Shown here one piece after another: positions 7,360-30,066 of a DNA stretch of 40,084 nucleotides. The notes below the pieces were generated by a model. That model was not told the DNA's origin. It ran no database searches and saw only the letters and a list, made by a program, of their open reading frames with translations. Positions within the stretch are counted from its first letter, which is position 1. Each line of letters opens with the position of its first letter. Made by a program: the position numbers and the translations under genes. This DNA is from an uncultured Clostridia bacterium (lineage in GTDB: Bacteria > Bacillota > Clostridia > Christensenellales > Borkfalkiaceae), in contig CANPZV010000007.1 of the NCBI GenBank assembly GCA_947589285.1, forward strand, positions 1 through 40,084, written 5' to 3'.

Positions 7360-10300
7360 TCATTCCACAGGTTCGGGAAGGCCGAGCTTGTCATACTCCC
7401 CGATGTAGTAGTTGTACATCTCGCCGAAGCTCGCGTCGAAGGCGTCCTTGTCGTCCCCCTCAAGGGCCGCATACAGCTCCTTCATGCGCTTGGCGCAGGA
7501 CTTGAGGTCCTCCACATGGGGCGTCCCGTCGTCATACTTGCCCTTGGGATCGATCATATAGGTCACAAAGCTGTCCTCAAGGTCGATGACCTGCTCGGCG
7601 GCGTCAAAGGCGGCGTCCGTCGGGAGCGCGTCGAAGGCGTACGTCATCATCGTGAAGTAGAAGCTGTAATACGCCGAATCCATGGACTGGTAGAATTCCT
7701 TCTCCTCGATCGTAAATCCGCGGTAGAGCTTCATCGCGTCTAAGAGACTCTGACGCATTTCCGCCGTCCCGTAGAGCTGGTTCCGATCCCCCTTCTTGAG
7801 GTCCTGAAGGGCCTGATCGGGATTCCACGCGGCGGACCTCTGGAACCACCACTGGAAGGCCCACATGGGAGCCGCAGCCTTGAGCATGAATTCCTTCAAA
7901 ACGGGATGCGCGGTGTAGTAGTCCCAGATGACCTGATCATCATAGGTGAGGTTGCGCATGATGTAGGTGTACATGCTGCGGACATAGTACAGCGCGTAGT
8001 CCATGGTCCACTGATAGGTCTCGAGAATGCTGATGCTCACATAGAATTTCTGATGATAGTACGCAGATACAACTTCCGCGGGAGCGTTTTCGATGATGTA
8101 GTCCGCAAGGCTCTCGGCATACTCGTAGGCGGAGAAGAGCAGGGGGTACATGGGCTGGCCCGTCTGCGCGATCGTGCTGTACGCCATGTACGCGTTGACG
8201 ATCATGTTGTTCAAGTCCTCGAACACGCCGCCCCACTCGGTGTCCTTCCATTCATCGCTCGTAAAGTCGATGTCGTGGACAAAGGTCTCCTGTTCGTCCT
8301 CCACCTTCGATTCGACGCGCGTTTCGATTTCAGTATACTTGGTATAGAACGTCCCGAGGAGGCCGTCGAATTCCTCCTGTTGCGCGGGCGTGAGCGCGTC
8401 ATAGGCAAGTTCCGCCGCCGCAATGCTCTCCCTGAAGGAGGCAAGCTCGGTGTCGATAGCGTTCCTGCGCGCATAGTGTTCGAGCGCGAGCAGAAGGTCG
8501 CGGTAGATGTCCCGCGCGTATTCGGGCAGGGCGTCGGCATAGGCGAGGAGAGCCTGCGAGAAGAAGGTGCGGGAATCCTCGTCATCGCCGAATACGACTT
8601 CGGGCGCACCGGGCCTGCTCTGATAGAGCGGATTGAGCGTGATGAGGACGCCGTACTGCATGGACGGGGCCATGGCGACGTATTCATCGAGCATCGTCTT
8701 GACTTTTTGCTCAAAAACTGCGTCCGTCTTGAACGGGAACGTCCTCTCCTCCCCCGCCTCGTCTGCCTCGGCGCAGTACTCCCCATACAGGGAAAGATAG
8801 TCCTCGATAAAGGCCTTGAATTCGTCCACCCCGAGGTAGGCATAGTACATATCGTACACGCCGCCCGCGCCCGTGCGGAGGAAGTCGAGCAATTCGCTGA
8901 ACTTCACGGGGATGGATTTGTTGTCCTGATAGAGGAGGTCGTCGAAGGTGAGCTGCTCGTACAGATTCTTCTCCAGCCCCGACGAGGCGGCGATCTCCGC
9001 GGCGAACGCCATGATGTCGTTGTAATCGTAAAGCAAGAACGTCGAATCGACGATGTACCCGCCCGAGATCATCTGCATGAGGAACATCTCATCGACGAGA
9101 TCCTCGTACAGCTTCTCGAGACGGCCGGGCAGGTAGGCCTCTTTGAGAATGGAGATCGCGTCCTGATCGTCGAGGCGGCTGTAATAGGAATACAGGATGT
9201 CGAAAATGTCATTCTTTGTCCGCCACGAGGAGGCGACGCCGTAGGTGTTCCTCGGGAAGGAATAGCCGAGCTGTGCGTCTCCGACCTTCTCGACGACGGC
9301 GTTCATCTTCGCCGCATATGTCCCGAGCTGGGAGACCTCCCAATTTTCGGGAATGTCCTTCATGGACTCATAGACGAAGATCATGATCTCGAGACGGGCC
9401 TGGAATCCGAAGAAGTAGTCGGGCCTGCTGAATCCCCCGAGGTATTCCTCCACCGTGCCCTCGCCCATGGCGTGATTGCCGAAGTTGTCGAGAATGTCTG
9501 CAAGCGCGTACCCGTAGAAGTTGAGGGGGAAATCCGCGGAGTCAAGTTCCTCATACAGATCTTTCGCCTCTGCGTATGTCACCTCCTCGTTGAGAACGAG
9601 GTCATTGTTTGAGACGGTAAAGATCGACTTGTACTTTTCGGCCTCGCTCCTCCAAAGGGGAAATGCGTAGGCGGCGGCGGGCAGGACGACGGCGTCGATC
9701 TCAGCCGCAGTGAGGTAGTCGGCGTCGGTCTTGGAGAGGGAGAGATAGTCCTCCACAGCGGAGAGGGCTTCCTCGCCGTCCTCGGCCGCGATCGCGGGAA
9801 CGGACTGCGTAAAGTCGTATTTTGCGAGCTTTTCGGCGGTCTTTTGGAAGGCCGTGACTTTCGAATAGGTGATCTTGATCTTGAAGGAATCGGTCACTCC
9901 GCCGTATTGGACGGTGAGCGTCTGCTCGAGGGGAGTGGTGCGGTTCGCCTCGGTCGCACGGGAGGGATCGAAGCCCGACACCATGTCCGCCGTGAGGTTC
10001 ACGATCCGCTTCAGTTCGCCGTTGTTCGCCGAGAAGGAGAAATATCCGTCCGTCACATCGAGGGCTTCATGGCTCTGATAGGCCGTCTTGCGCGGCGCAA
10101 AGAACTTGGCGTCGTCTGCCGCAAAGAAGTGGACGGAGATCCGGTCCGAATAATCTTTATCGCCGCTCTGATAGCGGACCTTGAACTGTTTTTCCCCCTC
10201 CGCAGAGGAATCGAACTCCTCCACGGTGACGTGTTCATCGGAGAACGGGACGGTGAACGAGACGCCGTTGTTCTCCGTGATGACGAGGGTCCCCCGCTCG

Positions 10301-10671: not shown

Positions 10672-10687
10672 AATTTTTACTCCTGTA

Positions 10688-13396
10688 TTATTGTTCGGTC
10701 CAAATGGCGTAAAGTGTTGTTCCCTCGGGGACGGAAGCGATCTCATTGGCCGCATACTCTACGGGGCCGTCCGCCGAGGTCCCCCAGCCTTCGAATTTAT
10801 ATCCGAAGCGCACGGGCGGGGCGATCTCCCTGTTTGCCGCATGTTCGATCGAACCCTCCGTCCGCTCGAAGGAGAGGACGTAGCCGTCAGCGGAGGTCTC
10901 ACACGCCCAGACGACGGGACGGTAGGAGGAATTCCAGCGGCTGTCCCAGCCTGCGGGGGCCTGTTTTGCCTCGCAATAGATCGTCATGTCGCTGCAACCG
11001 TAGAAGGCATGCGCCCCCATCGTGGCGACGTTCCCGCCGATGACGACGGAGGTGAGTCCGCTGCAGTTGCGGAAGGCGTACTTCCCGATCTCGGTCACGG
11101 AGGAGGGGATCGTCATGCGGGTAAGCGCGCCGCAGCCGTAGAAGGCGTAGTTCCCGATCGAGGTGACCTTTCCGCCCAGCGTGAGGTCGGCAAGCACGCC
11201 GCAATTATAGAAGGCGTTGTTGCCGATCCGCTCCACGCTCTCGGGAACGGAGAGTGCGCGGAGGGCGAGACAGTTGGTGAAGGCGTAGTCGCCGATCTCG
11301 CGCAGACCCTCGTGCAAAATGACGGAGGTGAGGGAGGCGCAACGTTCAAAGGCGTGGTCCCCCACGAATCCCACGGTGCGCGGGATGTTCACGCTCGCGA
11401 GTTTGAGACAGCTGTAAAATGCCCTTCCGCCGATCTCGGTGAGCTTATCCCCAAGCGAGAGAGAGGTCATCGAGGAGCAGGAATAGAAGGCGTATTCCCC
11501 GATCGAGGTCACGCTGTCGGGCACGTCCACCTTCCCGAGGCTCTCGCACTCATAGAACGCCGACCTGCCGATCTTTTCCAGCCCATTCGGAAGGATCACA
11601 TCCCCGAGCGCGCCGCAGCGGAAGAAGGTGTAGTCGTTGATGATCGTCACGTTTTCGGGAATGTTGATCGAGGACAGGGAGGAACAGCTGTAAAAGGCAG
11701 ATCTGCCGATAAAGCGCACAGTCTCGGGCAGAACGACCGTAGAGAGCTTGCCGCAGGAGTAGAAGGCATAGTCGGCGATGCCGATCGTCCCCTCACGGAT
11801 GTTCGCCGTCGCAATGTTCTGGTTGGTCGTTCCGACCACCCACTTCCCCGAGTAGATGATGCCGTAATTATCATTCCACAGGGCCGTATTGGTGAGGATA
11901 CGGGTGCCGATATGGGTAACGCTGTCGGGCAGTTCGATCGCCGCGAGGCGCGGGCAGGACGAGAAGGCGTAGTTTCCGACCTCCTCGAGCGCGTCGCCGA
12001 AGGTGATGTTGTCGAGGAGTTCGCAGTCAAAGAAGGCATATGCGCCGATGACGCGGAGATCCCCTGTGAGATCGACGTTCATCAGCCCGCTGCGGGAGAA
12101 GGCGTACGCGCCGATATATTCCGTACGCTCAGGCAGGGTCAGATTTTGTCCGCCGAACCCCGAAAAAACGGAGTCCGCGATCCCGCGCGTATCCGAGGCG
12201 AGTTCGATCGTCTGTTTCTCCCCGTCGCCGCGCTTCCAGCCGACTGCCCAGCCGTCCACATAGACGATATCCCCCTTTGCGTCCGCCCATGCGCGGGTCC
12301 CCGCAAAACAGGAGGTGCCGATAGAGGCAATGTTCTCCCCGAGGGAGACGCTGATCAGATTTTCGCATTCCGAAAAGACGATCATGCCGAGGGAGGTGAG
12401 ACTGTCGGGAAACTCGATCCTTTCGAGGGCGTGGCACTCGGCAAAGCCCCCCTCGCCCACCGACGAGACCTGCTCGCCGACATGGACGTCCGTCGCCGAA
12501 GAACAGCGGGCAAAGGCGTAGTTGCCGATCGTCTGGACGCCGTCGCCGATCGTGATCGACGTCGCGCCCGTGCAGGCAAAGAATGCCTCCGCGCCGACCG
12601 TGACAACGGAATCGGGGATCTCGATGGCGGTGAGCTTGTCACAGTCGGAGAAGGCAGATTCGCCGATGGTCTTTACCCCCTTCCCGAGGTGTACGGCCGT
12701 GAGCGCGCGGCAATAGGAGAAGGTGAAGGCGGAAATGGCGGTCACGGAGTCGGGGATCGTCACTTCCGTCAGCTTTCTGCAACTCTGGAAGGCGTAGTCG
12801 CCGATCTCCACGACGGAATCGGGGATCTCGACGTGGGTCAGCTCCGTGCAGTTATAGAAGGCATGCGAGCCGATCTTTTTGACGTTCTTCCCTATGGTGA
12901 TGCCGAGGAGGGCGGCGCGCCCCGTGAAGGCGTTGTCCGCGATCGAGATGACGGGTTTGCCGCGGAAGGTATCGCCGATCGTGATATCCCCCGCCGCGGT
13001 GCCGATGCCCGTGACCTCGTATGCCGTACCGTTCTCGACGGACGCATACCTCAGACCGTTCTCATATTCTTTGGTGTATTCAAGGGGTTCCGACCATGCG
13101 GAATCGGCATGCTCCTGCCCGTCCCCGATCGCTCTGACCCGAAACGTGTAGTCGTCCGCCTCCAACCCCTCCAGCGAGAAGCCGACCTCCACCACTTCCT
13201 CTGTGAGCGTCACAGAGGAGTTCTGCACTTCGACGGTGTACCGCCGCGCGTTCTCCACGGGATCCCACTGCAAGATTTGGCTGTCCACATCGACGCGCAG
13301 CGTTCGGGGCGCGTTCAGAGCAGGTGCCCCGCACCCCGCGAGCAGGGCGAGAAGGCACAAGAGCATCATAGCCGATACTGCCGCGAGCTTCTTCAT
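10688..13396 (-). CDS. BspA-type leucine-rich repeat lipoprotein
   Basis: 902 residues. Signal peptide with lipobox LLAGC, lipidated at Cys22. About residues 30-112 form a fibronectin type III-like domain (ILQWDPVENARRYTVEV, YTFRVRAIGDG). From about 125 to 835 I count about 26 LRR_5 (BspA/TpLRR) units of 23 residues, pattern xIGxYAFxxCxxLTxVxIPxSVTx. Two non-LRR inserts with a Trp (about 365-390 and 515-540) interrupt the array. The last 60 residues resemble an InlB/Listeria-Bacteroides repeat (FGYKFEGWGTS, LYAIWTEQ). Such proteins are surface-exposed and bind host or microbial ligands in characterised cases. The start overlaps the upstream VWA gene stop by four bases (ATGA), implying translational coupling with it. 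Confidence 0.93.
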   Translation of the reverse strand: MKKLAAVSAMMLLCLLALLAGCGAPALNAPRTLRVDVDSQILQWDPVENARRYTVEVQNSSVTLTEEVVEVGFSLEGLEADDYTFRVRAIGDGQEHADSAWSEPLEYTKEYENGLRYASVENGTAYEVTGIGTAAGDITIGDTFRGKPVISIADNAFTGRAALLGITIGKNVKKIGSHAFYNCTELTHVEIPDSVVEIGDYAFQSCRKLTEVTIPDSVTAISAFTFSYCRALTAVHLGKGVKTIGESAFSDCDKLTAIEIPDSVVTVGAEAFFACTGATSITIGDGVQTIGNYAFARCSSATDVHVGEQVSSVGEGGFAECHALERIEFPDSLTSLGMIVFSECENLISVSLGENIASIGTSCFAGTRAWADAKGDIVYVDGWAVGWKRGDGEKQTIELASDTRGIADSVFSGFGGQNLTLPERTEYIGAYAFSRSGLMNVDLTGDLRVIGAYAFFDCELLDNITFGDALEEVGNYAFSSCPRLAAIELPDSVTHIGTRILTNTALWNDNYGIIYSGKWVVGTTNQNIATANIREGTIGIADYAFYSCGKLSTVVLPETVRFIGRSAFYSCSSLSSINIPENVTIINDYTFFRCGALGDVILPNGLEKIGRSAFYECESLGKVDVPDSVTSIGEYAFYSCSSMTSLSLGDKLTEIGGRAFYSCLKLASVNIPRTVGFVGDHAFERCASLTSVILHEGLREIGDYAFTNCLALRALSVPESVERIGNNAFYNCGVLADLTLGGKVTSIGNYAFYGCGALTRMTIPSSVTEIGKYAFRNCSGLTSVVIGGNVATMGAHAFYGCSDMTIYCEAKQAPAGWDSRWNSSYRPVVWACETSADGYVLSFERTEGSIEHAANREIAPPVRFGYKFEGWGTSADGPVEYAANEIASVPEGTTLYAIWTEQ

Positions 13397-16110
13397 GATC
13401 TACCCCCCTCTGCCTGCATCTCCTTTTTGGCCTTGCGGTCGCGGATGATCTCATGCAACCATTTGAATTTGAACTTTCTGACCGCGACGTCGAGAAGGAA
13501 CAGGACGAGCGCGGTGATGATGAACGGGAGCATGGGGTCGTAGGTGCGGTGCAGGGTCTTTTCGTACTCCTCAAACACTTCCCACGGCGTCTCGGCGACG
13601 CCGACTTTTCCGCCCGTTGCAAGCCCTTCGACGGTCTCCTTGTCCAGCGTGGGGACCTTGAATGCGTCGTACTCCGCGGAGTACGAGAAAACTTTGTATG
13701 TGCTGTACCTCGCGGTCACATGGCCGCGGGCATCCTTCTTTTCGACGAGGATCTCGTGGATGCCGGGGTCGCGGATGAGGAAATCGTTGCGGCTCAATCC
13801 GTCCGAACTCGTGATGATCTTCTGCTGGTCGGCCGCCCTCGTTGAAGAGGGACCTCTCACCGTGATCTCGATCGTCTCGCCCTCGGCAAGGTCGGTATAG
13901 ACGGAGATCTGCGTGGTGTAATTTTCCTCCGTGATGCCGACGTCGATCTCCCGCGGGCGGATGTCCTCGATGGGGAAGAGGCTGCTGACGACGTTGTTGA
14001 GGAAGGCCGTCCCCGCTTCGCTCTTGAGGAAGTCCTCCGACCAGAGGCCCTCGAGGTCGCACATGAAACTGCCGACCGTGCCCATGCCGAATTTCCACTG
14101 CGCATAGATCGGTACATACGGCCCCTTGAGCGGGACGAGCGCGCCCTCCTTGGCCTTCGTGCCGTAGAATCCTTGCAGGGCGGGAAGGTCCTCCTGTTCG
14201 ATCCCCGAGACCGCCGAGGTATGGTCGCCGATCGTCGGGGTGAAGGTCTCGTAATTGACGTCGCGGATCTCGGGTGCCCTCAGGTCCTCCTTCATCGCAC
14301 TTGTGAGTTCGGAGGGTTTTTTGACGTCGTAAAATCTGCCGCCCGCTTCGCTCGTCACCTGTTCCATGTTGACGGCGTCGTTGTCGGCGACGTTGATCCC
14401 GACGACGGAGAAGGTGATCCCCGCCTCATAGTACCGCTTTGCGACCTCGCCATACTCTTCGGCTGTCTCGGCGGGCTGGCCGTCGGTGACGAGGACGATG
14501 TGTTTTTTCTCCACGCCGCGGAGGGCCTTCAACGCTTCGCCCGCCCGCTCGATGGCACCCGAGTAGATCGTGCCGCCGCCGATCTCGATCGCGTCGATCG
14601 CCGCCCGCAGCTTTGCCATCTCGGGAAGGGGCGTGATCTCCGCCTCCTCATGGTATTGGTCGTCGAGGGCCATGACGCCGCACCAGTCGCGCTCGCTGAG
14701 CGAATTGAGGCAGGCGATCGCGCCGTCCTTGGCGAGGTCAAGGTAGGTCCTGCCCGTCGCCGTGTCCTGCCCCGACATACTTCCCGAGCGGTCGATGATG
14801 ATCATCAGTCCGAGGGGCGGGGTGTAGTTGATCGCCTGCACGGGCAGCATCTGCTGATAGAGGGTCCCGTACATGTCGGCGCGGTCGTAGGCGTTGGCGA
14901 TGGGCGTACCGTCGGCCTCAAAGCCCTTGTTGCCGCCCACGGTGAACAGGCCGCCGCCGATCTCATAGACGTAGTTATAGAGGATCGTGTCAAAGCCTGC
15001 GGGCATATCCGCATTGGCGATGTTCACGAGGATGACCTGATCGTATGCGCGGAGTTCATCGAGCGTCGCGGGCATCTTTTCCGTGTCATAGACGCTGATC
15101 CGCGTCACATCGTACTCGCTGTCGTCGAGCAGGTCGTTGAGGCGGATGCCCTCGTCTTGGTCCCGCTCGATGATGAGGATCTTATCGAATACGTTCAGGA
15201 AGATGTAGCTGTAATAGGAGTTATTTTCGGTCAGAGTATCCCCGTCGCTCTCGATCTCGAAGTGCAGTTTGTGCATGTCGGGGATCTCAAAGAAGTAGTC
15301 GAGGCGGAAGGTCTGCGTCCCGCGCACAAAATCGACAGTGTAAGATTCATCGCTGACGTTGCCGTTCACGTCCTCGTCGAAGAGGCGGATGTTCGCCTTG
15401 CCTTCAAAGGAACTCTGCACGGTCATCTCCAGCTGAAAGACGTCCCCCGCGACGATGCTGTAATCGGGCGTCGTCACGCCGACGATCTCCACTTCATCGT
15501 GCGCCGAGGAGCCGAAAAATACGGTGTCGAGCCGCACGCCGTCCGCCGCGGCCGTCTTGATCGCCGAGATCGCGTCCCCGTCCGTGGGGATGCCGTCGGT
15601 GATGAGGACGATCTTTGCCGTCTCGGGGCGGGTAAACAGCCCCTTGGCGAATCCGATCGCCGAGGCGATGTCCGTCGCGCTGTCGTCGGGGGCTTCGGCC
15701 GAGAGATAGGACGCATAGGCGGCGTTCTTGTCGGACGTAAGTTCGGCGGCGTACACCTGATCGAAGCCGAACGTCACGACGCCGAGGCGGAATTGTCCCC
15801 CGCTCTCGTCGATGACGGACTTGACAAAGGCGTCCTTTTTGTCCCTCTCCTCCCTTCCGCTGTGCGAAAGATCGACGAGAAGAATGACTTCATTGTCGGA
15901 ATTGGGCACGTCGTAGCGGAAGTTGATCCCCGAGAGGACGGAGATGCACAGCGTCATCACGATCATGTGGAGGATCATGGAGATCACGCGATTGCGCGTC
16001 CTGCGGTACTTTTTGGCGAGCAGGAAATAGGGCAGCAGCGTGAGGGCAAGTGCGGGAATGAGCAGAAGCAACAGCCAAGGGCGTTCAAATGTGATGCTGA
16101 AATTCGACAT
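13393..16110 (-). CDS. Membrane protein with two von Willebrand factor A domains
   Basis: 905 residues. Two N-terminal membrane helices (about 11-32 and 42-62), then VWA domain 1 with MIDAS D80-x-S82-x-S84 and VLITDGIPTDGD. About residues 280-410 look like the glutamine amidotransferase-like (class I) fold often placed between such domains (ILIIERDQDEG, DQVILVNIANADM, GGGLFTVGG). VWA domain 2 starts near residue 435 with IIDRSGSMSG and has LVTDGQPAET. A C-terminal helix (about 865-885) returns the tail to the cytoplasm. Both MIDAS motifs look intact, so metal-dependent protein binding is expected. It lies 12 bases after the BatA-like gene with GAGGAGG ahead of the ATG. VWA partners of MoxR ATPases usually act in protein or metal-centre assembly. 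Confidence 0.92.
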   Translation of the reverse strand: MSNFSITFERPWLLLLLIPALALTLLPYFLLAKKYRRTRNRVISMILHMIVMTLCISVLSGINFRYDVPNSDNEVILLVDLSHSGREERDKKDAFVKSVIDESGGQFRLGVVTFGFDQVYAAELTSDKNAAYASYLSAEAPDDSATDIASAIGFAKGLFTRPETAKIVLITDGIPTDGDAISAIKTAAADGVRLDTVFFGSSAHDEVEIVGVTTPDYSIVAGDVFQLEMTVQSSFEGKANIRLFDEDVNGNVSDESYTVDFVRGTQTFRLDYFFEIPDMHKLHFEIESDGDTLTENNSYYSYIFLNVFDKILIIERDQDEGIRLNDLLDDSEYDVTRISVYDTEKMPATLDELRAYDQVILVNIANADMPAGFDTILYNYVYEIGGGLFTVGGNKGFEADGTPIANAYDRADMYGTLYQQMLPVQAINYTPPLGLMIIIDRSGSMSGQDTATGRTYLDLAKDGAIACLNSLSERDWCGVMALDDQYHEEAEITPLPEMAKLRAAIDAIEIGGGTIYSGAIERAGEALKALRGVEKKHIVLVTDGQPAETAEEYGEVAKRYYEAGITFSVVGINVADNDAVNMEQVTSEAGGRFYDVKKPSELTSAMKEDLRAPEIRDVNYETFTPTIGDHTSAVSGIEQEDLPALQGFYGTKAKEGALVPLKGPYVPIYAQWKFGMGTVGSFMCDLEGLWSEDFLKSEAGTAFLNNVVSSLFPIEDIRPREIDVGITEENYTTQISVYTDLAEGETIEITVRGPSSTRAADQQKIITSSDGLSRNDFLIRDPGIHEILVEKKDARGHVTARYSTYKVFSYSAEYDAFKVPTLDKETVEGLATGGKVGVAETPWEVFEEYEKTLHRTYDPMLPFIITALVLFLLDVAVRKFKFKWLHEIIRDRKAKKEMQAEGGRS

Positions 16111-18048: not shown

Positions 18049-18941
18049 TCCATGATACCTGCCTTTAACAGCTCGCCGAAGAGCATAGTTTCGATAGGTT
18101 TTGAAGTATCGACAAGGATGTGGTCTGCCCCGCGGGAGGCGCAAAAACTCCTGATCCCGTCGAGGAAATCGCGCATGGCCTCGTCATAGGCCGCCAGCAT
18201 TCCCCTCGTGATGCGGAGTTTCATATTCCTTTCGTCGGTCATGTCCCGCGCCTCCGCGTCGAGAAGGTTGACCCTGCCGCTGTACAGGGGGTCAAGCTCT
18301 TCGGGAGTGAGCGTCTGCACAAGGAGGATCTGCCGTTTTTTATATACGAGAAAATCGACCGCCTTCTCCCAGCTGAATTCGGTCAAAAAATCGGAAATGA
18401 TCACAGTCAGTCCGTCGTTCGTTCCCGTCGGGGTGTTCACGACCGCCTCCGCGATGTCGGCTTCGTCCTCGAATTCGATCTTTTCGAGGTCGCCGATCGC
18501 CCTGAAGAAGGTGTTCTTCCCCACGATCGTCCCGATGGGGTCCTCCGCGACGTTGCCCTTGATGAGCTTGTAGGAGACCTTGTCCATGTTGTGGACGGCC
18601 AGAAAGCCGAGGGCCGCCGCCACGGCGACGGCATACGCCGCCTTCGCGGGGTTGGCCTTCCCCATGGAGGCCGAGCAGTCGAGAAAGATCTGCACGTGCA
18701 TCTGCCGCTCGTCGGTGAACAGTTTGAGGAAATATTTTTCGAAGCGGCTGTACAGGTTCCAGTCGATCCTTCGGATATCGTCCCCGAGCATATACTCGCG
18801 GTAATCGGCAAATTCTACCGTCTGCCCGTAGGTACGGACGAGGTGTTTCCCGCCGAAGAATCCCGCCAAGTTCGTCCTCAAACTCAATGCCAGCGTCTCC
18901 AAACGACTGAAAAATTCATCGTTTATGTATGACGGCTTCAT
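18045..18941 (-). CDS. DUF58 domain protein
   Basis: 298 residues. The DUF58 signature is clear: VEFADYREYMLGDDIRRIDW at residues 42-61. It is followed by a VWA-like core with FLDCSASMG (MIDAS-type D88, S90, S92) and VIISDFL. No membrane helix or signal peptide, so cytoplasmic. DUF58 proteins are the usual partner encoded next to MoxR ATPases and are thought to act as adaptors. The ATG abuts the MoxR stop with no base between, and the stop overlaps the next start by four bases. Confidence 0.95.
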   Translation of the reverse strand: MKPSYINDEFFSRLETLALSLRTNLAGFFGGKHLVRTYGQTVEFADYREYMLGDDIRRIDWNLYSRFEKYFLKLFTDERQMHVQIFLDCSASMGKANPAKAAYAVAVAAALGFLAVHNMDKVSYKLIKGNVAEDPIGTIVGKNTFFRAIGDLEKIEFEDEADIAEAVVNTPTGTNDGLTVIISDFLTEFSWEKAVDFLVYKKRQILLVQTLTPEELDPLYSGRVNLLDAEARDMTDERNMKLRITRGMLAAYDEAMRDFLDGIRSFCASRGADHILVDTSKPIETMLFGELLKAGIME

Positions 18942-20042: not shown

Positions 20043-20065
20043 GAAATTTATCCTCACATATTTTT

Positions 20066-21207: not shown

Positions 21208-24200
21208 TCAGTTTGCCGCTTTGAGGTAGACGATCTGCGCTTCGTTGTTGGAGTACGGTCCTATCCACGCGCCCCATGCCGCCGTTGCCGCCGCTTCGTC
21301 TGCAAACGGGATCTCGATCGTCTGATCTTCCGTCCAGCCCTTGAACGCGCCGTTGTTGACGGAGGTCACGCTCTCGGGGATCGTGAGCTTGGTCAGGCTC
21401 GTCACGTTTTCGAACGCGCTGCTGCCGATCTCTTTCAATCCCTGCGGAAGAACAAGTTCGGTCAGACCGCTGCCGCAGAAGGCGTTGTAGCCGATCGTTT
21501 CGAGCGAAGCGGGAAGCTGCAATGTCTTGAGGTTCTTGCAGCCGTTGAACGCACTGCCCTCGATAGAGACGATCGTATCGGGCAAGGTGACATTTGCAAG
21601 TGCGGTACAACCGTTGAACGTGCCGCTCAGTTTGGTGACTTTCGCATTGACGACGGCCGTCTGAAGCGATTCGGCCTGCCTTGCGAAGCCGCCCATTTCC
21701 GTGACAGTCGCGGGAACGGTGACCGATTCAACGCCGCTCAACATGAACTCACTCTCGCCGACCGAAACGGTCCCTTCAGGGAAGGTGAACGATTTGAGCG
21801 CAGTGCATTCGCGGAAGGTGTACCCTGCGAAGGTGAACGGCATACTGCCGTCTGTATTGAAATTGACTTCCGCAAGGCTCGTACACTTCTCAAACGTGCT
21901 GCTGAACGTCGCAACGCTTTCCATCGTGGGATCGCTATAAGGTGAAGACAATTCGTATTCCACATCTCCGAGATATTCGGGGAAGGTGATGGACTTCAGT
22001 GCGGTGCAGCCGTAGAACGCGTCATAACCGAGCGTGAGCCTGTAACCCGCAAGGACGGCTCCCGTCTCCTCGAAGGTGACGCTCTCGAGCATGGTGTCGT
22101 TTGCAAAGGTATGGCCGCCGATGCCGTGAGAAACGTCTGCCGAAGGATACCACGAAGAATCGTCGATCTCAACGAGCGTGCGGACGCGCTTGGGGATCTC
22201 GATCGACTTGAGCGCGGTGCAGCCGCTGAACGCGTAGTCGCCGAGGGTGAGGACTTCGATGCCGTCAGGCTCGAAGTTCACGTCAGTGAGCATCGTGCAG
22301 TTCTGGAAGGCATACGAACCGATCTGCGTCGTGTACTTGCCGATCGTGATCGACTTGATCGCCGTCCCGCTGAATGCGTTGAGTCCGATGACCTGTACGT
22401 CGTCGTGCATTTCGACGACCGTGAGGTTCGCGCAGTTCTCAAAGGCGTGCGCGGGGATCTCATGAATGCTGTTCGGGATCTTGACCTCTTCGATCTGGGA
22501 CCCGCTGAACGCCGCGTTCATGATGCTCGTGACGGTATCGGGGATCTCGAACCGCCCGCCCTTGGTCGCGGGATAGCTCAGAAGGGTGGTCTTGTCGGCA
22601 TTGTAGAGGACGCCGTCCAACACGGAGAACGAAGGGTTATCGGGTGCGATCTCCAGCCCGGGAACGCCGCGGAACACGTTCGTCCCGATCTTCAGGACCG
22701 TAGAAGGAACGGTGATATCGGAGAGCGACGTGCAGTCTGCGAACGTCTCGTCCTTCAGTTCGCCAAGATTCCCGATGCGCATTTCGACTTTCACGAGGTC
22801 TGCGCACCCGAGGAAGGCCTGCCTGTCGATCGTTTCGACCGTGCCGCTGATGAACACAGAGGTGATGCCGGAGGCATTGAACGCGGCCGTTCCGATCGAG
22901 ATAAGGCTGTTGGAGAAGTCAAACGTCGCAAGCGATTCGGCCTTGCGGAACGCATAGCTGCCGATCTTCGTCACATCGGGGGCGAACTCCACGTCTGCGA
23001 GTTCGGTCGCCCCGTCGAAGAGATAGCTCGGGATCTCGGTGACGCCGGGAAGGCTCGCGCTGACGAGGGAGGTGCATGCCTGGAAGGCATTGCTCCCGAC
23101 CGTCGTGACGCTTGCGGGCAGTTCGATCTCCTCAAGCGAAGTGCAATTGTGGAATGCGTACTCTCCGACCGAGGTGAGCAGGTTGCCCGTAAAGCTGACG
23201 CTCTCCAATTCGGCGCAGTTCTCGAACGCGTAGGCCCCGATCGAGGTCACTCCCGCGGGAATAGAGATCGACTTGATCCCCGTTCCCTTGAGGGCTTCCC
23301 TCCCAATGCTCGTCACGCCCGAAGGGATCGTGAAGTTGTTGAGGGCGGCGCATCCGCCGAACACTCCGCTGGGGAAATCCTTGATCTTCTGTCCCGCAAA
23401 CGTGACGCTTGCAAGGGCAGAACAGTTGTTGAATGCCTGGCTTCCGATCGAATCGACATTTTCGGGGATGGTGATCGTCGTGATCTGTTTGCAACCGTAG
23501 AACGCGCTCGACCCGATCTTCGTTACCGTCGCGGGGATCGCGAAGGCGGTGAGCTTCGCGCACGAATAGAACAATTCGTCGGGAAGTTCGATGATCGTCG
23601 TCGTCGGATCGATCGTCACGGTCGCAAGTTCGCCGCAATTTGCGAACATCGATTCGCCGAGTTCGACCACGCGCGCGGGAATGGTGATCGTCTTGAGTGC
23701 GTCGCAATGCTTAAACACATCTGCGGCGAGCGTCCCTTTCTCGTTGGTCGCGGACGGCTCCTCATCCCTGAACTTCAGATTCACGCCATCTGTAAAGGTG
23801 ACCGTTGCAAGCTTGGTGCATTCCTCGAAGGCGGACGACATGATCCTGCTTACCTTCGCGGAGATCGTGACGGCCTCGAGGACTTGGTTCCCCTTGAAAG
23901 CCTTCGTCCCGATCGTCACAACGCTCTCAGGCACGACATAGTTCTTTTCCGTCTTGCCGAGAGGGTAGAACACGAGCGTCTGCATCGCATTATCGAACAG
24001 GACGCCGTTCTGCGCCTTGTACGTCTCGGACGTTTCAGGCACATTGATCTCGGACACGGTGGCGGGGAAGAGCGAGGAAACGTCCCCGACTTCTTTCAAG
24101 TTTGCAGGCAATGTGACCGAAGTCAAATGCTTGCATTCAAAGAACATACTGGAGGTAAGCTTTGTCAGCCCCGAAGGGAATACAATGCTTGTCACGGCCG

Positions 24201-27200
24201 AATAGGCAAATGCCTGTGAGCCGATCGACGTGAGCTTGCTCGCATTTTCACCCTCGCCGTCCGTGAATTCAATGGTCGCAAGAGGGCCGTCATCGCCATA
24301 GCTCCCCGTGAACGCATTGGCACCGATCGAAGTCGTGTGCGCGGGGAATTTCACCGCAGTGAAATGAGGATACCTGAACGCATAATCGAGGATCTGGAGG
24401 CCCTTTCCGCCCTCCGTAAACGTAACGGTCTCAAGGGCTTCGCATCCGTCAAACGCATATTTGTTGATCGTAGTCAACGAAGCGGGGATGACGATCGATG
24501 TGATGCCGGACTCCGCAAACGCATAGTCGAGGATCTCAACGGTGCGCTCGGGAAGTTCGACGGTCGTGATGGCCGAATCCGTGAATACATTTGTGTGGGT
24601 CGGTGAGGAAGTGTATTGCGATTCATTCACGCCGATCGTGAGCGGCTTGTCGGTACCCGCATATTCCTCGAAGGAGACTTTCGTCAGCTTGGAGCCATAG
24701 AACGCCTTGTTTGCGATGAGGGTCACGGTATTGGGCACGGTGACCGTTCCCGTCTTCCCGACGGGGCAATAGAGCAGCGTCGTCTTGTCGCTGTTGTACA
24801 GGACGCCGTCCTTCGCGCTGTAGGCCGTGTTGCCCTCCGCAACGTCGATGCTCGCAAGCGCGGAACATCCGTCAAATACGTCATTGCCGAGCTTCGTCAG
24901 ATGCTTGGGCAGAGAAGCGGAGGTGATCGCGGCGTTCTGGAATGCCTTGTCGCCAAGTTCCAGGGCAGCGTCTGCCCCTTCTGCCGCGGCAAAGGTGACT
25001 GTTTCGATGCCCGTGTTCGCAAACGCGCTCGCGCCGATCGTCTTTACCGTCGCGGGGATCTGCAAGGTCCCCTTCAGCGTCGCAACGCCTGAGAACGCAC
25101 TCGAGCCGATGCTTTCGAGCTTCGCGGGAAGCACAAGGCTCGTCAGTTTGGTGTTCGCAAACGCGCTATCGGCGATCGCCGTCACTTTTTCGGGGATCGT
25201 GACCGATTCGATGATGGTACCTGAAAACGCGTTATTGTCGATAACTTCGAGGTTGCTCGTCTCATCCTTGCCTGCAAATGTGACTTCGGAGAGCTGCGTG
25301 CAGCCCTTAAAGCAATTCTTGCCGACCGTCTTCGTGCGGGCGGGAAGCGCGATCTTGGCGAGCGAGGTGCAGTCCGTAAAGACGCCCGTGGAGAAATCCC
25401 CTGCAAGTTCGAGAGGATCTTCGCCGCCGCCGATCTCGACCGTCTTGAGCTGAGCGCACTTCGCAAACGCGCCTGCGCCGATCTTCGTGACGCTCGAGGG
25501 AATGGAGATAGAGGCAAGTTTGGTGCAGCCCGAGAAAGTCTCCGCGGGGATCTCCTTGACGCCCGCCGCGATCGTCACAGTTTCAAGCCGGGTGCAATTC
25601 TTGAACGCGCCCGAGCCAATGGAAACGCCGCTTGCAAGGGTCACGGAGCCGATCGCCGTCGATGCGAAGGCGGAATCGCCGATCTGCGTGACGTGCGTGA
25701 GGTCGATCGCCGTGAGGCCCGTACCAGAGAACGCTTCCTTGCCGACCTTTTCCACTTTCGAGAGATCGACCGCCGTGATGCCCGTGCCGTAGAACGCGCC
25801 TTCGCCGATCTCCGTCGCCCCGCCGAGCGTGACCGTCAACACGGCGACGTCGTGATACAGGGCGTGATCGGGGATCGCCTTCAAGCGTTCGGGGAAGTTC
25901 ACCGCCGTAAGCCCGGGGCAGTTTTCGAAGGCGGATTCGCCGATCGTGAGTTCCTCCGTCCCATCCGCGAATGTGATAGTGCGCAGGCGGGAGCAATTTG
26001 CAAACGCTTTCTCCGCGATCGTCTTGACGTTCGCACCGATCGTGATAGATGTAATGTTATTGTTGCCGCTGAATACGCCCTCGCCGATCGTCTCGAGCGT
26101 GGGAAGCAGCTGAGGGGTCTCCTCCGTCCTCGCCTTGGCATAGAAGAGGATCTCGGTCCCCGCTTTGTTGTAGAGGACGCCGTCCTCATCGCGGAAATGC
26201 TCGCTGTTTGCGTCCACGGTGACTTTGCGGAGGTTTTCGCAGCCTGCGAACACGCTCGCATTGAACTCCGTGACGTTGGCGGGAAGGTGGACGCTCGTGA
26301 GAGCCTGGCAGTTCTCAAATACGTTCTTGCCGAATTTGAGGTCCGCGCCGTCTGCCGCGAAGGACACGGAGGCGAGCAGGACGCAGTTGGCAAAGGCAGA
26401 ATCTTCGACGTCGGTCAACCTCTGAGGAAGGGAGATCTCCGTGATGAGACGCAGCCCCGAGAAGGCATTCGCACCGATGACGGTCACGGGCGAACCCGCT
26501 TCAAAGGTGACGGAACGGATATTGGTGTTGCCGCTGAAGGCATTCTCCCCGATCGTGAGAGCGACGTTGGCGGGAGCGTTCCCCTCGAAGAGAACGGTGC
26601 GCACGCCCGTGCAGCCCTCGAACGCGTTGTTGCCGATGACAGTGACGAAGTTGGGGATCACGATGTCGGTGAGTTTTGTACACCTCTTAAAGGCCTCGGC
26701 TTCGATCTCTTTGACGCCTTCGGGAACGGTGTAGCGGCCCGAACGCGCCTTGGGAACGTAGATGATCACGCTCTTGTCCTCATTCGTGAGGACGCCGTCG
26801 ATGGAGCCGAAGGTATCGTTGCCGTCTGCGACCTCGAGATAGGCGAGCTTGCTGCAACCGTTGATGATGTCGCCGATGCCGTCCGCCGCGTCTGCGTCGA
26901 GGGCAAAGTGCGCGGGAAGTTCAAGCCCGTACAGCGACGAACACTGTGCGAACGCACCCTTGTGGATCACGATAGAGACATCGCTCCCCTCCGAGCCGCT
27001 CTTTGCCTCAAAGTTGACCGCAACGAGCCTGTCGCAGTAGATGAAGGCATTCTGCTGGATCTCGGTGACGGTATTCGGAATGGTGATCTCGCTGATCTTC
27101 GCGCCGGAGAACACCTTTTGCCTGATGACCTCGACGCCTGCGGGGATCTTGTATTCCCCCGTCTTGCCGAGCGGGAAGAAGGCGACTTCGACCTTCCCCG

Positions 27201-30066
27201 TCGCTTCGAGATTCCTGATGACGACGCCGTCGTCGGAGTAATATTCCACGACCTCACATCCCGCGGGACGCTGATCCGTGGGGACGGCGTACAGTTCCAC
27301 CTCTTCGAGATAGGAACACATATAGAACGCTTCACCCTCGTTCAGATCCTGAATGGTGTCGGGCAAGCTGATCTTGAAGAGATTCCTCTGGGAAGAGAAC
27401 GCATAGGGCGCGACTTCCTTCACGGGAAGCACGCTGTCTCCGTCGGGATAGGTCACGGGGACGGTGATCTGGGTCACCTGGCCGATCTGGGGACCGCCCG
27501 AGACGGAATAGTATGCGGTGCCTCCTTCGGGTTCCACCTTGGTGAAGGTGAGGACTTCCGCATAGAAGGCGTACACGGTCACGTCGCTCGGGGCGTTCCA
27601 TGTGATCACGCTCTCGCCGTGGTCGTCCGTATAGCGCGTTCCCCCGCCGCCGGGCAGGCTGAACCAGCCCGCGAAGGCATATTTTGCATCGTCGATCGTG
27701 GCCTCGGGGAACTTGAAGGAGCTGCCGAAGGTGACCTCCTGCTTCTCCGATTCACCCGTGCCGTTGCCGAAGTTGAAGCTGACTTCAAAGGACGCCGCCT
27801 TCCAGTTCGCATAGACCACGCTGTCCTGTCCGAAGAAGTGGTCGTCTGTGAAGGGCGCGCCGCCGCCCGCCGCGCCGCCTGGCGCGTTGTACCAGCCGTC
27901 GAACTCGTACCCGTCGCGGACAGCGTCGGGAAGTTCGAGCTTGTCGCCCTGCGCCTTGTAGAGCGGATCGAGACGGTTGCCCATGCGGGTATCGAACTCG
28001 ATGGTGTAAACGTTGATGTCAAGGCTCACCCATTCGGAGAGCTGCCCGCGCATGACGTAGCGGACCCGTACCGTATTCACGCCCGCGTGGGGGAATGCGA
28101 TCTCGGCGGAATAGCTCCCGTCCTCAACATAGATGGGATCCTCGTTCTCGACGGCGACCTCATAGATCTCCGCACCCACAACGGGACGCCAGCTCAGGAC
28201 GCCCTCGGAGTAGGAGAGAACATCATAAAGTTCATCGTAACGCGCCGTGACGGCGTCGGAATAGAGGGAAGAACCGTTCGCGTCGACCGCCTTCACGCTG
28301 ATCGTGCAATCGTTCCCCTTCTGCCAGCCGATCGCGCCCGAGATGTCGCACTCCGTGCCCTGTGCGGGAAGTTCGATGTTGTTCACGCGCACAGTATAGG
28401 ATGCCGCGCCTTCGACGGGCGACCACGAGACGATCATGCCGTCGATGTGCAGATCTTCGGGCGTCGCGATCGTCGCCTTGTGGTATGCGACGGAGGCTGC
28501 TGCGGGAGAGTTGTATCCTTTAGTCGCGGGGACGACCTTGACGGTGACGTCGCCCGCAGGGAACGTTTTCAGACTGAAACTCGTCTTGCCGACGACGCGC
28601 ACATGCTCCTTGGAGAGGGCCGCGTTGGCGCATTCGACGTCAACGTAGTACTCCGATGCGCCCGCAACGGCGTCCCAGACGACCGTCTCTGTCTCCGCAT
28701 CTACATGCAGGCCCGTCACCGCGCCGAGGACGCGGTTATAGACGAACTCGCGCGAGACGGAGGGAGCGAACCCGTCGGCGACCGCCGTGACGGTGAATTC
28801 GATCCCCTCTTCCGTCAGGGCGCAGTTTGCGAAGTTGAAGTTGGTGGAGGTATCGTTGTCGAAATTCTCGTGATGATGCCCCTTCGTCCCGCACTCCACC
28901 GTGATGAGATAATGCTCCGCGTTCTCCACGCCGTCAAAGACGAGGAGGGAATCGGCCATCACATTGAAGTGCGACACGCGCGCGAGCGACTTATTTTTAT
29001 AATAGAGGACCGTGGGAGCGGAAGCACTCGTCCCCGTCCCGTTGGCGGTGACGCTGACGACGTAATCGCCCGCGGGCGCGGCGGCAAAGTTGACGTTCAC
29101 CGTCGTATCCGAACCCGTGCTGTTGACCGCGGTGAAGCCCTCAGGCCCCGTCACGCTCACCGTGTAGGAGACGGCCCCCGCGATGCCCTGCCAGCTGATG
29201 GTATTCGCGCCGATCGTGACGTCGGGAGAGGCAAGCCCCGCCGCGTTCGCCGACTTCCAGACGGCAAAGAGCGTCGTATCCTCGTTGAATACCGTCTGCG
29301 CGGTGCAGCGGTAGGAGAGCCGATCGGCTTTGTCGTACATGCTCACCCACCAGCCGTCAAAGACGTGCCCGTCCCATACGGGGGTGGGCAGGGAGTACAA
29401 TTTCCCGCCGACGGTACTCACTTCGGCATATTCGCCCGCCGCGCCGCCGAGGTCAAACCCGACCGTGTATTCCGCCTGCCCGGGCTTCTTCTCCCCCCAC
29501 TGCGCATAGAGCGTGAGGTCGCTCGTCACGGGGAGGGTCCCGAAGAGATAGGGCGTCGTGTGCGCGTCATCGGCATACCAGCCGACGAACGCATACCCCG
29601 TGCGGGTGGGATCCGCGGGCTTTTGCAGCGTTTTCCCGTTGAGAACGGTCACATCGTCCACGGCAGAGCCGCCGTCCACCTCAAAGTGGACGGTGCGGTT
29701 GACCTTTTTCAAAAAGCGCAGGTCGGAGCCGCGGTATGTAAGGGAAAGCGTCTCTCCGCTGAGCGTGCCGACGATCGCCTGCTCCTCCGTATTCCCGAAG
29801 GTCAGGGTGAGGACTTCCTCCGCGAGGGTATACTTGCCCGAGAGGACAGAACCCATCACGGCAAAGGAGAACCTGTTTCCGTCACTCAGCGTGACGAAAT
29901 ACTCTCCGTCCTCGGCGTCGTAATAGTAGACGCCCGACTCGGGGCCGGGAGAAACGATCTCATCGTCGGGATCCTTGCCGCCCTTATTGCACGCCGCAAG
30001 CGCGGCGGCGGCAAAGAGAGCGCATACGCAGGCCAAAAGAGTCACCAACCATTTTTTTGCTTTCAT
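21208..30066 (-). CDS. Giant BspA-type leucine-rich repeat lipoprotein
   Basis: 2952 residues. Signal peptide from MKAKKWLVTLL with lipobox ALAAC. The N-terminal 900 residues carry InlB/Listeria-Bacteroides repeats (about 95-165, 165-250 and 730-830; marks are GYAFVGWY, GHVFDGWW, GYEFDGWY and LTLYAQW) and four or five fibronectin type III-like modules between them (ISWQGIAGAVSYTV, VVWDAVAGASEYYV, VSWSPVEGAASYTV, LSWRPVVGAEIYEV). From about residue 880 to the end I count about 74 LRR_5 units. Six inserts of the type DGVLYNxDKTTLLxYPxGK break the array near residues 955, 1095, 1299, 1755, 2029 and 2489. The ATG at 30066 has GAGGTG ahead; the longer frame from 30135 lacks a signal peptide start. 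No sorting signal or cell-wall anchor is seen, so lipidation is the only anchor. Intact despite the repeats. Confidence 0.94.
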   Translation of the reverse strand: MKAKKWLVTLLACVCALFAAAALAACNKGGKDPDDEIVSPGPESGVYYYDAEDGEYFVTLSDGNRFSFAVMGSVLSGKYTLAEEVLTLTFGNTEEQAIVGTLSGETLSLTYRGSDLRFLKKVNRTVHFEVDGGSAVDDVTVLNGKTLQKPADPTRTGYAFVGWYADDAHTTPYLFGTLPVTSDLTLYAQWGEKKPGQAEYTVGFDLGGAAGEYAEVSTVGGKLYSLPTPVWDGHVFDGWWVSMYDKADRLSYRCTAQTVFNEDTTLFAVWKSANAAGLASPDVTIGANTISWQGIAGAVSYTVSVTGPEGFTAVNSTGSDTTVNVNFAAAPAGDYVVSVTANGTGTSASAPTVLYYKNKSLARVSHFNVMADSLLVFDGVENAEHYLITVECGTKGHHHENFDNDTSTNFNFANCALTEEGIEFTVTAVADGFAPSVSREFVYNRVLGAVTGLHVDAETETVVWDAVAGASEYYVDVECANAALSKEHVRVVGKTSFSLKTFPAGDVTVKVVPATKGYNSPAAASVAYHKATIATPEDLHIDGMIVSWSPVEGAASYTVRVNNIELPAQGTECDISGAIGWQKGNDCTISVKAVDANGSSLYSDAVTARYDELYDVLSYSEGVLSWRPVVGAEIYEVAVENEDPIYVEDGSYSAEIAFPHAGVNTVRVRYVMRGQLSEWVSLDINVYTIEFDTRMGNRLDPLYKAQGDKLELPDAVRDGYEFDGWYNAPGGAAGGGAPFTDDHFFGQDSVVYANWKAASFEVSFNFGNGTGESEKQEVTFGSSFKFPEATIDDAKYAFAGWFSLPGGGGTRYTDDHGESVITWNAPSDVTVYAFYAEVLTFTKVEPEGGTAYYSVSGGPQIGQVTQITVPVTYPDGDSVLPVKEVAPYAFSSQRNLFKISLPDTIQDLNEGEAFYMCSYLEEVELYAVPTDQRPAGCEVVEYYSDDGVVIRNLEATGKVEVAFFPLGKTGEYKIPAGVEVIRQKVFSGAKISEITIPNTVTEIQQNAFIYCDRLVAVNFEAKSGSEGSDVSIVIHKGAFAQCSSLYGLELPAHFALDADAADGIGDIINGCSKLAYLEVADGNDTFGSIDGVLTNEDKSVIIYVPKARSGRYTVPEGVKEIEAEAFKRCTKLTDIVIPNFVTVIGNNAFEGCTGVRTVLFEGNAPANVALTIGENAFSGNTNIRSVTFEAGSPVTVIGANAFSGLRLITEISLPQRLTDVEDSAFANCVLLASVSFAADGADLKFGKNVFENCQALTSVHLPANVTEFNASVFAGCENLRKVTVDANSEHFRDEDGVLYNKAGTEILFYAKARTEETPQLLPTLETIGEGVFSGNNNITSITIGANVKTIAEKAFANCSRLRTITFADGTEELTIGESAFENCPGLTAVNFPERLKAIPDHALYHDVAVLTVTLGGATEIGEGAFYGTGITAVDLSKVEKVGKEAFSGTGLTAIDLTHVTQIGDSAFASTAIGSVTLASGVSIGSGAFKNCTRLETVTIAAGVKEIPAETFSGCTKLASISIPSSVTKIGAGAFAKCAQLKTVEIGGGEDPLELAGDFSTGVFTDCTSLAKIALPARTKTVGKNCFKGCTQLSEVTFAGKDETSNLEVIDNNAFSGTIIESVTIPEKVTAIADSAFANTKLTSLVLPAKLESIGSSAFSGVATLKGTLQIPATVKTIGASAFANTGIETVTFAAAEGADAALELGDKAFQNAAITSASLPKHLTKLGNDVFDGCSALASIDVAEGNTAYSAKDGVLYNSDKTTLLYCPVGKTGTVTVPNTVTLIANKAFYGSKLTKVSFEEYAGTDKPLTIGVNESQYTSSPTHTNVFTDSAITTVELPERTVEILDYAFAESGITSIVIPASLTTINKYAFDGCEALETVTFTEGGKGLQILDYAFRYPHFTAVKFPAHTTSIGANAFTGSYGDDGPLATIEFTDGEGENASKLTSIGSQAFAYSAVTSIVFPSGLTKLTSSMFFECKHLTSVTLPANLKEVGDVSSLFPATVSEINVPETSETYKAQNGVLFDNAMQTLVFYPLGKTEKNYVVPESVVTIGTKAFKGNQVLEAVTISAKVSRIMSSAFEECTKLATVTFTDGVNLKFRDEEPSATNEKGTLAADVFKHCDALKTITIPARVVELGESMFANCGELATVTIDPTTTIIELPDELFYSCAKLTAFAIPATVTKIGSSAFYGCKQITTITIPENVDSIGSQAFNNCSALASVTFAGQKIKDFPSGVFGGCAALNNFTIPSGVTSIGREALKGTGIKSISIPAGVTSIGAYAFENCAELESVSFTGNLLTSVGEYAFHNCTSLEEIELPASVTTVGSNAFQACTSLVSASLPGVTEIPSYLFDGATELADVEFAPDVTKIGSYAFRKAESLATFDFSNSLISIGTAAFNASGITSVFISGTVETIDRQAFLGCADLVKVEMRIGNLGELKDETFADCTSLSDITVPSTVLKIGTNVFRGVPGLEIAPDNPSFSVLDGVLYNADKTTLLSYPATKGGRFEIPDTVTSIMNAAFSGSQIEEVKIPNSIHEIPAHAFENCANLTVVEMHDDVQVIGLNAFSGTAIKSITIGKYTTQIGSYAFQNCTMLTDVNFEPDGIEVLTLGDYAFSGCTALKSIEIPKRVRTLVEIDDSSWYPSADVSHGIGGHTFANDTMLESVTFEETGAVLAGYRLTLGYDAFYGCTALKSITFPEYLGDVEYELSSPYSDPTMESVATFSSTFEKCTSLAEVNFNTDGSMPFTFAGYTFRECTALKSFTFPEGTVSVGESEFMLSGVESVTVPATVTEMGGFARQAESLQTAVVNAKVTKLSGTFNGCTALANVTLPDTIVSIEGSAFNGCKNLKTLQLPASLETIGYNAFCGSGLTELVLPQGLKEIGSSAFENVTSLTKLTIPESVTSVNNGAFKGWTEDQTIEIPFADEAAATAAWGAWIGPYSNNEAQIVYLKAAN

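What the first reader, a model, noticed from the sequence alone, without database searches (positions are those of the whole stretch)
7360..30066. MoxR/DUF58/BatA/VWA module fused in one block with three giant surface lipoproteins
Eight same-strand genes run for 22.7 kb. The moxR, DUF58, BatA-like, double-VWA and LRR-lipoprotein genes are linked by zero to 12 base gaps or four-base overlaps, and the Ig-domain lipoprotein follows after 16 bases. MoxR/VWA modules are known chaperone systems, but linkage to a 902-residue LRR lipoprotein, an 1103-residue Ig-like lipoprotein and a 2952-residue LRR lipoprotein suggests a system that builds, checks or organises repeat-rich surface proteins. The seen part is the gene order and overlaps; the function is inference.
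Basis: partly seen in the sequence, partly recalled or inferred. Interest (0 to 1): 0.75.

Follow-up and report, generated by a model that had tools for sequence, protein, structure and literature searches.

The report
ATPase module paired with surface lipoproteins
In gut Clostridia, a known kind of energy-driven protein-remodelling gene set is inherited as one unit with its own large leucine-rich-repeat surface proteins, suggesting a machine that builds or works surface structures; the link is conserved, but its function is untested.

Summary
Eight minus-strand genes fill 7360-30066: giant LRR lipoprotein, three-TM protein (P7), MoxR, DUF58, BatA-type, two-VWA protein (VWA2), LRR lipoprotein (LRR9), Ig lipoprotein. 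The linkage is not chance. Of 144 distinct VWA2 loci examined, 99 have an LRR gene next and 11 more have one only upstream; the sample leans to close relatives. In 15 same-genus genomes LRR9 divergence tracks VWA2 (r 0.91, Mantel p 0.0002) but hardly RmuC, an imperfect genome marker (r 0.25), so the cassette is inherited as a unit. It is patchy, sometimes multi-copy, and none of 18 same-genus genomes without it has a MoxR. The link is lineage-specific: 20 modules fetched from elsewhere in the class (19 outside the order) keep the core, but 0 of 20 has LRR adjacent.

Best reading: a Bat-like MoxR/VWA module specialised for dedicated surface lipoproteins. MoxR-DUF58 would act from the cytosol on membrane VWA proteins whose outward MIDAS sites hold the lipoproteins. 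Gene order and co-inheritance are shown; mechanism is inferred. The nearest precedent found is the bifidobacterial PFNA operon. New variant of a known kind.

The parts
21208..30066 (-). Giant LRR lipoprotein, 2952 aa: lipobox signal peptide, InlB-type (Flg_new) repeats, many LRR_5 repeats
   Evidence: an LRR gene is next upstream of P7 in 33 of 46 (fetched relatives) and 51 of 59 (named) loci with P7, 0 of 16 in the class-level set
20066..21082 (-). P7: 338-aa protein, three predicted TM helices, C-terminal part predicted outside with an InlB-like repeat (weak, below cut-off)
   Evidence: relatives recognised by profile in 16 of 20 class-level loci
18942..20057 (-). MoxR AAA+ ATPase, 371 aa from GTG (an ATG at 20042 is possible); Walker A/B intact
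   Evidence: G57, G59, K60, T61 and D120, E121 each 104 of 104
18045..18941 (-). DUF58 protein, 298 aa, no convincing TM anchor, VWA-like DxSxS motif at D88/S90/S92
   Evidence: D88, S90, S92 each 110 of 110
16123..18048 (-). BatA-type membrane protein, 641 aa: two N-terminal TM helices, VWA-like region, C-terminal TM
13393..16110 (-). VWA2: 905 aa, two N-terminal TM helices, first VWA, beta-rich region, GATase1-like domain with a second VWA inserted, C-terminal TM with basic tail
10688..13396 (-). LRR9: 902-aa LRR lipoprotein with FN3-like N-terminal region (read by eye), LRR_5 repeats, InlB-type C-terminal repeat
   Evidence: consensus of 96 homologues; an LRR gene is next after VWA2 in 99 of 144 distinct loci
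7360..10671 (-). Ig-domain lipoprotein, 1103 aa: three Ig-like domains then about 830 aa mostly helical; in 62 of 116 LRR-next loci (duplicates between sets not removed) the place is taken by another lipoprotein of about 1700 aa (X17)
   Evidence: Ig type in 27 of the same 116

Best explanation
The block is a self-contained surface-lipoprotein cassette built on a Bat-like MoxR/VWA module. Shown: gene order, co-inheritance and domain content. Inferred: MoxR (hexameric ATPase) and DUF58 (cytosolic VWA-like adaptor) act at the inner face of the membrane on P7, BatA and VWA2. These three carry their large domains outside (from hydropathy and the positive-inside rule). The outward MIDAS sites of VWA2 grip dedicated lipoprotein partners (LRR9, giant LRR, Ig or X17), and ATP-driven remodelling assembles, arranges or releases them as a surface structure, most likely for adhesion or ligand capture in the gut. 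The confidence given is for 'the LRR lipoproteins are dedicated exofacial partners or clients of the VWA proteins'; the ATP-driven loading step alone is nearer 0.35.
For: Conserved order: the next gene after VWA2 is LRR in 41 of 59 scorable loci (fetched relatives, same genus and order; 2 more of 61 cut) and 75 of 79 (named; 1 more of 80 cut). Tight coupling in the fetched relatives: DUF58-BatA 4-base overlap in 30 of 42, VWA2-LRR 4-base overlap in 17 of 41. LRR9 tracks VWA2 (Pearson 0.91, Spearman 0.70) but hardly RmuC (VWA2-RmuC 0.25) in 15 same-genus genomes. Among loci with LRR9, its tree distances follow BatA (0.84) and VWA2 (0.81) more than DUF58 (0.65) or MoxR (0.56). No MoxR in 18 of 18 cassette-free same-genus genomes. 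Ig lipoprotein family found along its length in 4 of 5 cassette genomes asked, against 0 of 18 without. MIDAS residues nearly invariant over 144 sequences. Three distinct loci keep P7-BatA-VWA2-LRR9-terminal lipoprotein without MoxR/DUF58 between P7 and BatA. In NorQD the MIDAS is needed for activity but not for MoxR binding (PMC9976466, passages).
Against: The core module occurs without adjacent LRR in 20 of 20 class-level loci and in 12 of 61 loci of the fetched relatives. LRR_5 proteins occur in the genus with or without the cassette (9-100 domain matches in 34 of 34 genomes asked, 9-75 in the 8 of these without VWA2; candidates capped at 90), so LRR proteins as such do not need MoxR. Tight linkage alone gives co-inheritance. 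The low MoxR/DUF58 correlations may be lack of resolution: even VWA2-MoxR and VWA2-DUF58 are only 0.54 and 0.61 in the same loci. MoxR is cytosolic and the lipoproteins outside, so force would have to cross the membrane, for which no evidence was found.
Confidence: 0.55

Rival explanations
1. The MoxR/DUF58/BatA/VWA module has a general envelope role (Bat-like stress tolerance), and the LRR/Ig lipoproteins are a co-regulated surface operon without direct contact.
For: Core exists without LRR in 20 of 20 class-level loci. The terminal lipoprotein is exchangeable (Ig type or X17). A run of lipoproteins with a giant LRR gene occurs elsewhere in the own genome without MoxR in the stretch read (L230).
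Against: LRR9 co-diverges with VWA2 against RmuC, has a fixed plan, and is kept in three cassettes without MoxR/DUF58 at their usual place. Same-genus genomes without the cassette have no MoxR, so a general role is dispensable there.
Confidence: 0.25
2. The VWA and LRR proteins together are the adhesive or sensing device; MoxR-DUF58 only matures it (for example metal loading or folding of the VWA proteins), not the lipoproteins.
For: Cassettes without MoxR/DUF58 between P7 and BatA keep VWA and LRR. Borrelia BB0172, a VWA protein near a MoxR gene, binds integrin (PMC5700661, passages).
Against: MoxR may act in trans: the genome of L218 has two MoxR copies elsewhere, and a MoxR start follows X17 at the contig end in L221.
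Confidence: 0.15
3. The linkage is a by-product of common LRR genes, without functional meaning.
For: LRR_5 matches in 34 of 34 genomes of the genus asked.
Against: 99 of 144 distinct loci with LRR next, the named ones at 41-56% VWA2 identity to the window; LRR9 with a common plan.
Confidence: 0.04

Closest known systems
Bifidobacterial PFNA operon (pkb2-fn3-aaa-atp(MoxR)-duf58-tgm), PMC8430577 (passages)
   Same: MoxR and DUF58 in one operon with a large secreted surface protein; species-specific, gut-associated; chaperoning of FN3 was suggested there
   Different: There a kinase and a transglutaminase; here BatA, VWA/GATase-like protein, P7 and LRR/Ig lipoproteins; no kinase or transglutaminase hit among the cassette genes or scanned neighbours
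Bat (aerotolerance) operon of Bacteroides, Borrelia and Leptospira (PMC5700661, passages)
   Same: MoxR, DUF58, BatA-type and BatB-like VWA proteins
   Different: No BatC/BatD-type hit in the cassette genes or scanned neighbours; dedicated LRR, Ig and InlB-repeat lipoproteins added
MoxR-vWA ternary conflict systems (PMC7159879, passages)
   Same: MoxR with VWA partner plus variable third components; the MoxR also passes the bpMoxR cut-off, far below its AAA_3 score
   Different: Those carry VMAP, iSTAND, FtsH or a beta-propeller; no such hit in the eight cassette proteins, and only a weak AAA match to anti-phage models in seven of them
NorQ/NorD (PMC9976466 passages; PMC13036017 abstract and outline)
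   Same: ATP-driven MoxR with a VWA partner whose MIDAS is proposed to bind the client
   Different: Soluble partners acting on nitric oxide reductase; here the VWA domains are predicted outside

Membership tests
MoxR AAA+ ATPase | AAA_3 domain with intact Walker A and B | tested here: met
   PF07726 206.8 bits (cut-off 27); motif residues 104 of 104
MoxR AAA+ ATPase | Subfamily (MRP, TM0930 and so on) | not tested
   No subfamily tree made
Bat operon | BatA-type two-TM protein with VWA next to MoxR and DUF58 | tested here: met
Bat operon | BatC/BatD/BatE genes (recalled definition, partly in PMC5700661) | tested here: not met
   No such Pfam hit in the 8 cassette genes, 10 further ORFs or 9 further called genes; flanks are rpsF-ssb-rpsR type genes and a cysteine-desulfurase/NifU/Rrf2 set
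PFNA operon | pkb2 kinase and transglutaminase | tested here: not met
   Not among Pfam hits
PFNA operon | MoxR-DUF58 with a large surface protein | tested here: met
MoxR-vWA-beta-propeller ternary system | bpMoxR-type ATPase | tested here: inconclusive
   PF20030 39.7 bits (cut-off 27), but AAA_3 scores 206.8
MoxR-vWA-beta-propeller ternary system | Beta-propeller fused to the VWA protein | tested here: not met
   No propeller hit in P0003 or P0004; the VWA2 model shows VWA, GATase-like and beta-rich parts
BspA-type LRR (LRR_5) surface proteins | LRR_5 repeats | tested here: met
   717.7 and 1103.6 bits; solved LRR relatives 4fs7, 4gt6
Lipoproteins | Signal peptide with lipobox cysteine | tested here: met
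   Sequences; simple pattern in 70 of 98 LRR, 21 of 23 Ig and 38 of 46 X17 homologues (starts are mechanically called)
Lipoproteins | Lipidation and surface exposure | not testable with these tools
   Needs experiment

The most novel reading that the evidence does not exclude
A mobile, self-contained trans-envelope machine in which a cytosolic MoxR-DUF58 motor uses ATP to load, arrange or switch exchangeable LRR/Ig lipoprotein 'heads' on outward-facing MIDAS receptors; in multi-copy genomes several head sets share one motor, giving a gut commensal an energised, diversifiable surface.
Probability: 0.22. Interest if true: 0.85.

Novelty: new variant of a known kind. Interest (0 to 1): 0.6.

Why it matters
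What many MoxR/DUF58/VWA operons act on is, to my knowledge (recalled), open. Here nature supplies dedicated, co-inherited candidate partners (LRR9, giant LRR, Ig or X17), lineages with and without them, a genome with nine VWA2 matches, and records of named strains that carry the cassette (Anaerocaecibacter muris L161, Pumilibacter intestinalis L213). That makes the client question directly testable. If the partners are real, BspA-type LRR surface proteins would have an ATP-driven assembly partner; four literature searches for such a link returned no paper (open-licence library only).

Tried and rejected
Anti-phage or conflict system: PADLOC scan of seven of the eight proteins (giant LRR not scanned) gave one weak AAA match only (DolB 19.4 bits); rejected.

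Pfam name for P7: none above cut-off; a link to DUF4175 was recalled only and is not claimed. NCBIfam on seven proteins: no model reached its cut-off.

Promoter and terminator scans: near or below shuffle levels except 8 against 3.2 promoter-like sites in one region; uninformative. Rfam: 0 matches.

'MoxR is missing altogether' in cassettes without it between P7 and BatA: not upheld. The genome of L218 has two copies elsewhere. In L221 a MoxR start follows X17 at a contig end, with 141 identical bases on a second contig after a P7 gene. G048 shows no MoxR, but an assembly gap at a repeat cannot be excluded. G035 has nine VWA2 and one MoxR match, G036 eight VWA2 rows (some fragments) and two MoxR; of the nine G035 copies one has MoxR in the stretch read, three are cut in or just above DUF58, five show none.

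Motif 'RWNS..RPV.W' as an LRR9 signature: strict pattern in only 38 of 113 downstream LRR proteins, 0 of 78 upstream ones; kept as a consensus feature only.

First gene caller (codon model of the window) failed on AT-rich loci; replaced by per-locus training. The gap counts for the 60 fetched relatives come from the first caller.

Full report
WHAT IS THERE. Eight minus-strand genes run from 30066 to 7360 exactly as reported: giant LRR lipoprotein, P7, MoxR, DUF58, BatA-type, VWA2, LRR9, Ig lipoprotein. Hydropathy gives three TM helices each to P7, BatA and VWA2 and only a signal peptide to the three lipoproteins. Basic loops and tails place the large domains of BatA and VWA2 outside (inference by the positive-inside rule). 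The nearest called genes on either side face the other way: ribosomal protein S6, SSB and ribosomal protein S18 on one side, a class-V aminotransferase (cysteine-desulfurase type), NifU-like protein and Rrf2 regulator on the other.

CONSERVATION. VWA2 has relatives in 46 of 101 genomes searched: own, 42 of 60 same-genus relatives (my count; one, G050, is a short VWA hit only) and 3 of other families in the order. I fetched 60 regions from the listed matches ('fetched relatives'), 20 class-level regions (19 of about 47 genomes outside the genus with a match above 430 bits by my count, plus G449 at 377 bits; one of the 20, G290, is from another genus of the same family, 19 are outside the order), and 80 named loci, the best 80 of 238 confirmed. 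That last query was built from LRR-bearing members, so its fractions are biased upwards. Next gene after VWA2 (same strand, within 700 bases): LRR in 41 of 61 fetched relatives (11 unassigned, 3 DUF58, 4 none, 2 cut), 0 of 20 class-level (11 unassigned, 9 none) and 75 of 80 named (2 unassigned, 1 none, 1 VWA2 piece, 1 cut). Upstream of P7: LRR in 33 of 46, 0 of 16 and 51 of 59. The gene after LRR9 is X17 in 30 and the Ig type in 8 of 41, and X17 in 32 and Ig in 19 of 75. The named and fetched sets overlap. After removing duplicates 144 loci remain: 99 with LRR next (41 fetched, 58 named), 11 with LRR only upstream (8 and 3), 34 without (20 class-level, 12 fetched, 2 named). Of the 11, L202 has LRR9 after a second VWA2 piece and L215 ends there; of the 34, the two named ones (L170, L183) are contigs of about 4 kb whose next ORF is cut. 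The tree was read as tip order only, without support values: most X17 loci group together and the class-level loci lie apart.

THE CORE IS WIDER AND LRR-FREE ELSEWHERE. In the 20 class-level loci BatA is recognised beside VWA2 in 20, DUF58 in 19, MoxR in 18, P7 in 16. Upstream genes of about 310 and 300 residues look like an ABC ATPase and permease (L132 read by eye; the 310-residue genes of L126, L127 and L137 are related). LRR_5 is absent from 15 of those 20 genomes. G290, in the same family, has further large proteins downstream and, about 13 kb on, a 2513-residue protein with LRR units on the same strand. A protein of about 450-500 residues follows VWA2 in L088-L092 and L123 and is one family; a second of about 750-820 residues is shared by L088-L090 and L123. 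So other lipoprotein-like partners may replace LRR there (inference).

CO-INHERITANCE. Among loci with LRR9 (96) its tree distances correlate, where both genes are present, with BatA 0.84, VWA2 0.81, P7 0.73, Ig 0.70, DUF58 0.65, X17 0.64 and MoxR 0.56; VWA2-MoxR and VWA2-DUF58 are themselves only 0.54 and 0.61, so resolution may explain the difference. As a control I used RmuC, found in only 17 of 30 genomes asked, an imperfect genome marker. In 15 same-genus genomes, one cassette each chosen by me where there were several, VWA2-LRR9 identity correlates 0.91 (Spearman 0.70; Mantel p 0.0002, 5000 permutations) and VWA2-RmuC 0.25 (Spearman 0.14; p 0.038). G088, of another family, has 50% RmuC but 52% VWA2 identity to the window, while the 14 same-genus genomes have 67-82% and 42-50%. 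Horizontal movement or old paralogy of the whole cassette would explain this.

ALL OR NOTHING. The 18 same-genus genomes without VWA2 show no MoxR: 17 give only hits of at most 21.8 bits in another AAA protein and one gives none, while the best hits of three cassette genomes are 634-814 bits. The 18 are 71-98% complete. The Ig lipoprotein family is found along its length in 4 of 5 cassette genomes asked (the fifth, G004, shows none) and in 0 of 18 without; G027 has two partial matches. LRR_5 in general is not tied to the cassette (34 of 34 genomes asked).

VARIANTS. Some genomes have several copies (G035 9, G036 8 VWA2 matches), several without an adjacent MoxR. Three distinct loci (L047 = L214, L218, L221) have P7 directly followed by BatA, with VWA2, LRR9 and a terminal lipoprotein kept (that of L218 cut by the contig end); caveats on MoxR elsewhere are in Tried and rejected. 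L084-L087 have no LRR in the stretches read.

HOW IT MOST LIKELY WORKS. In NorQD the VWA MIDAS is needed for active enzyme but not for MoxR binding, and is proposed to bind the client (PMC9976466, passages); the ATPase remodels a linker of the VWA partner (PMC13036017, abstract). By analogy, DUF58 with its own DxSxS would be the cytosolic partner of MoxR, and the outward MIDAS sites of VWA2 would hold extracellular partners, for which the co-inherited lipoproteins are the obvious candidates. The step across the membrane is unproven.

KNOWN OR NEW. The parts are known. The nearest operon found is PFNA of bifidobacteria (PMC8430577, passages), where chaperoning of the FN3 surface protein by MoxR was also only suggested. 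Searches for MoxR with DUF58/von Willebrand/LRR, with BspA/LRR, with LRR/lipoprotein/gene cluster, and with surface/lipoprotein/von Willebrand/Clostridia returned no paper (open-licence library only). I therefore call it a new variant of a known kind.

Noticed in passing
window 1702-5397 (+): 1231-residue protein with a membrane anchor and many related short repeats (read by eye), no Pfam hit
   Followed up: no
window 35799-36629 (-): Small LRR_5 lipoprotein (276 aa) about 5.7 kb beyond the block, outside the conserved cassette
   Followed up: partly
window 32952-34265 (-): HtrA-like trypsin/PDZ lipoprotein close to the cassette; its conservation there was not examined
   Followed up: no
window 34474-34505: AATTAAA tandem repeat, 4.6 copies, in a contig of 55-62% G+C
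   Followed up: no
L068 14523-15899, L078 1046-2611, also L071 and L077: Related lipoproteins of about 430-530 aa beside four cassettes; the two read (L068, L078) look like a thioredoxin-fold region after Cys-rich repeats (domain read by eye)
   Followed up: no
L221 20661-20801 and L237 1421-1561: 141 identical bases with a MoxR start after X17 in one contig and after P7 in another, both at contig ends: MoxR may be a near-identical repeat in that genome
   Followed up: partly
L230 (own genome C8): Run of lipoproteins (about 510 and 804 aa) with a 2578-aa LRR protein and no MoxR in the stretch
   Followed up: no
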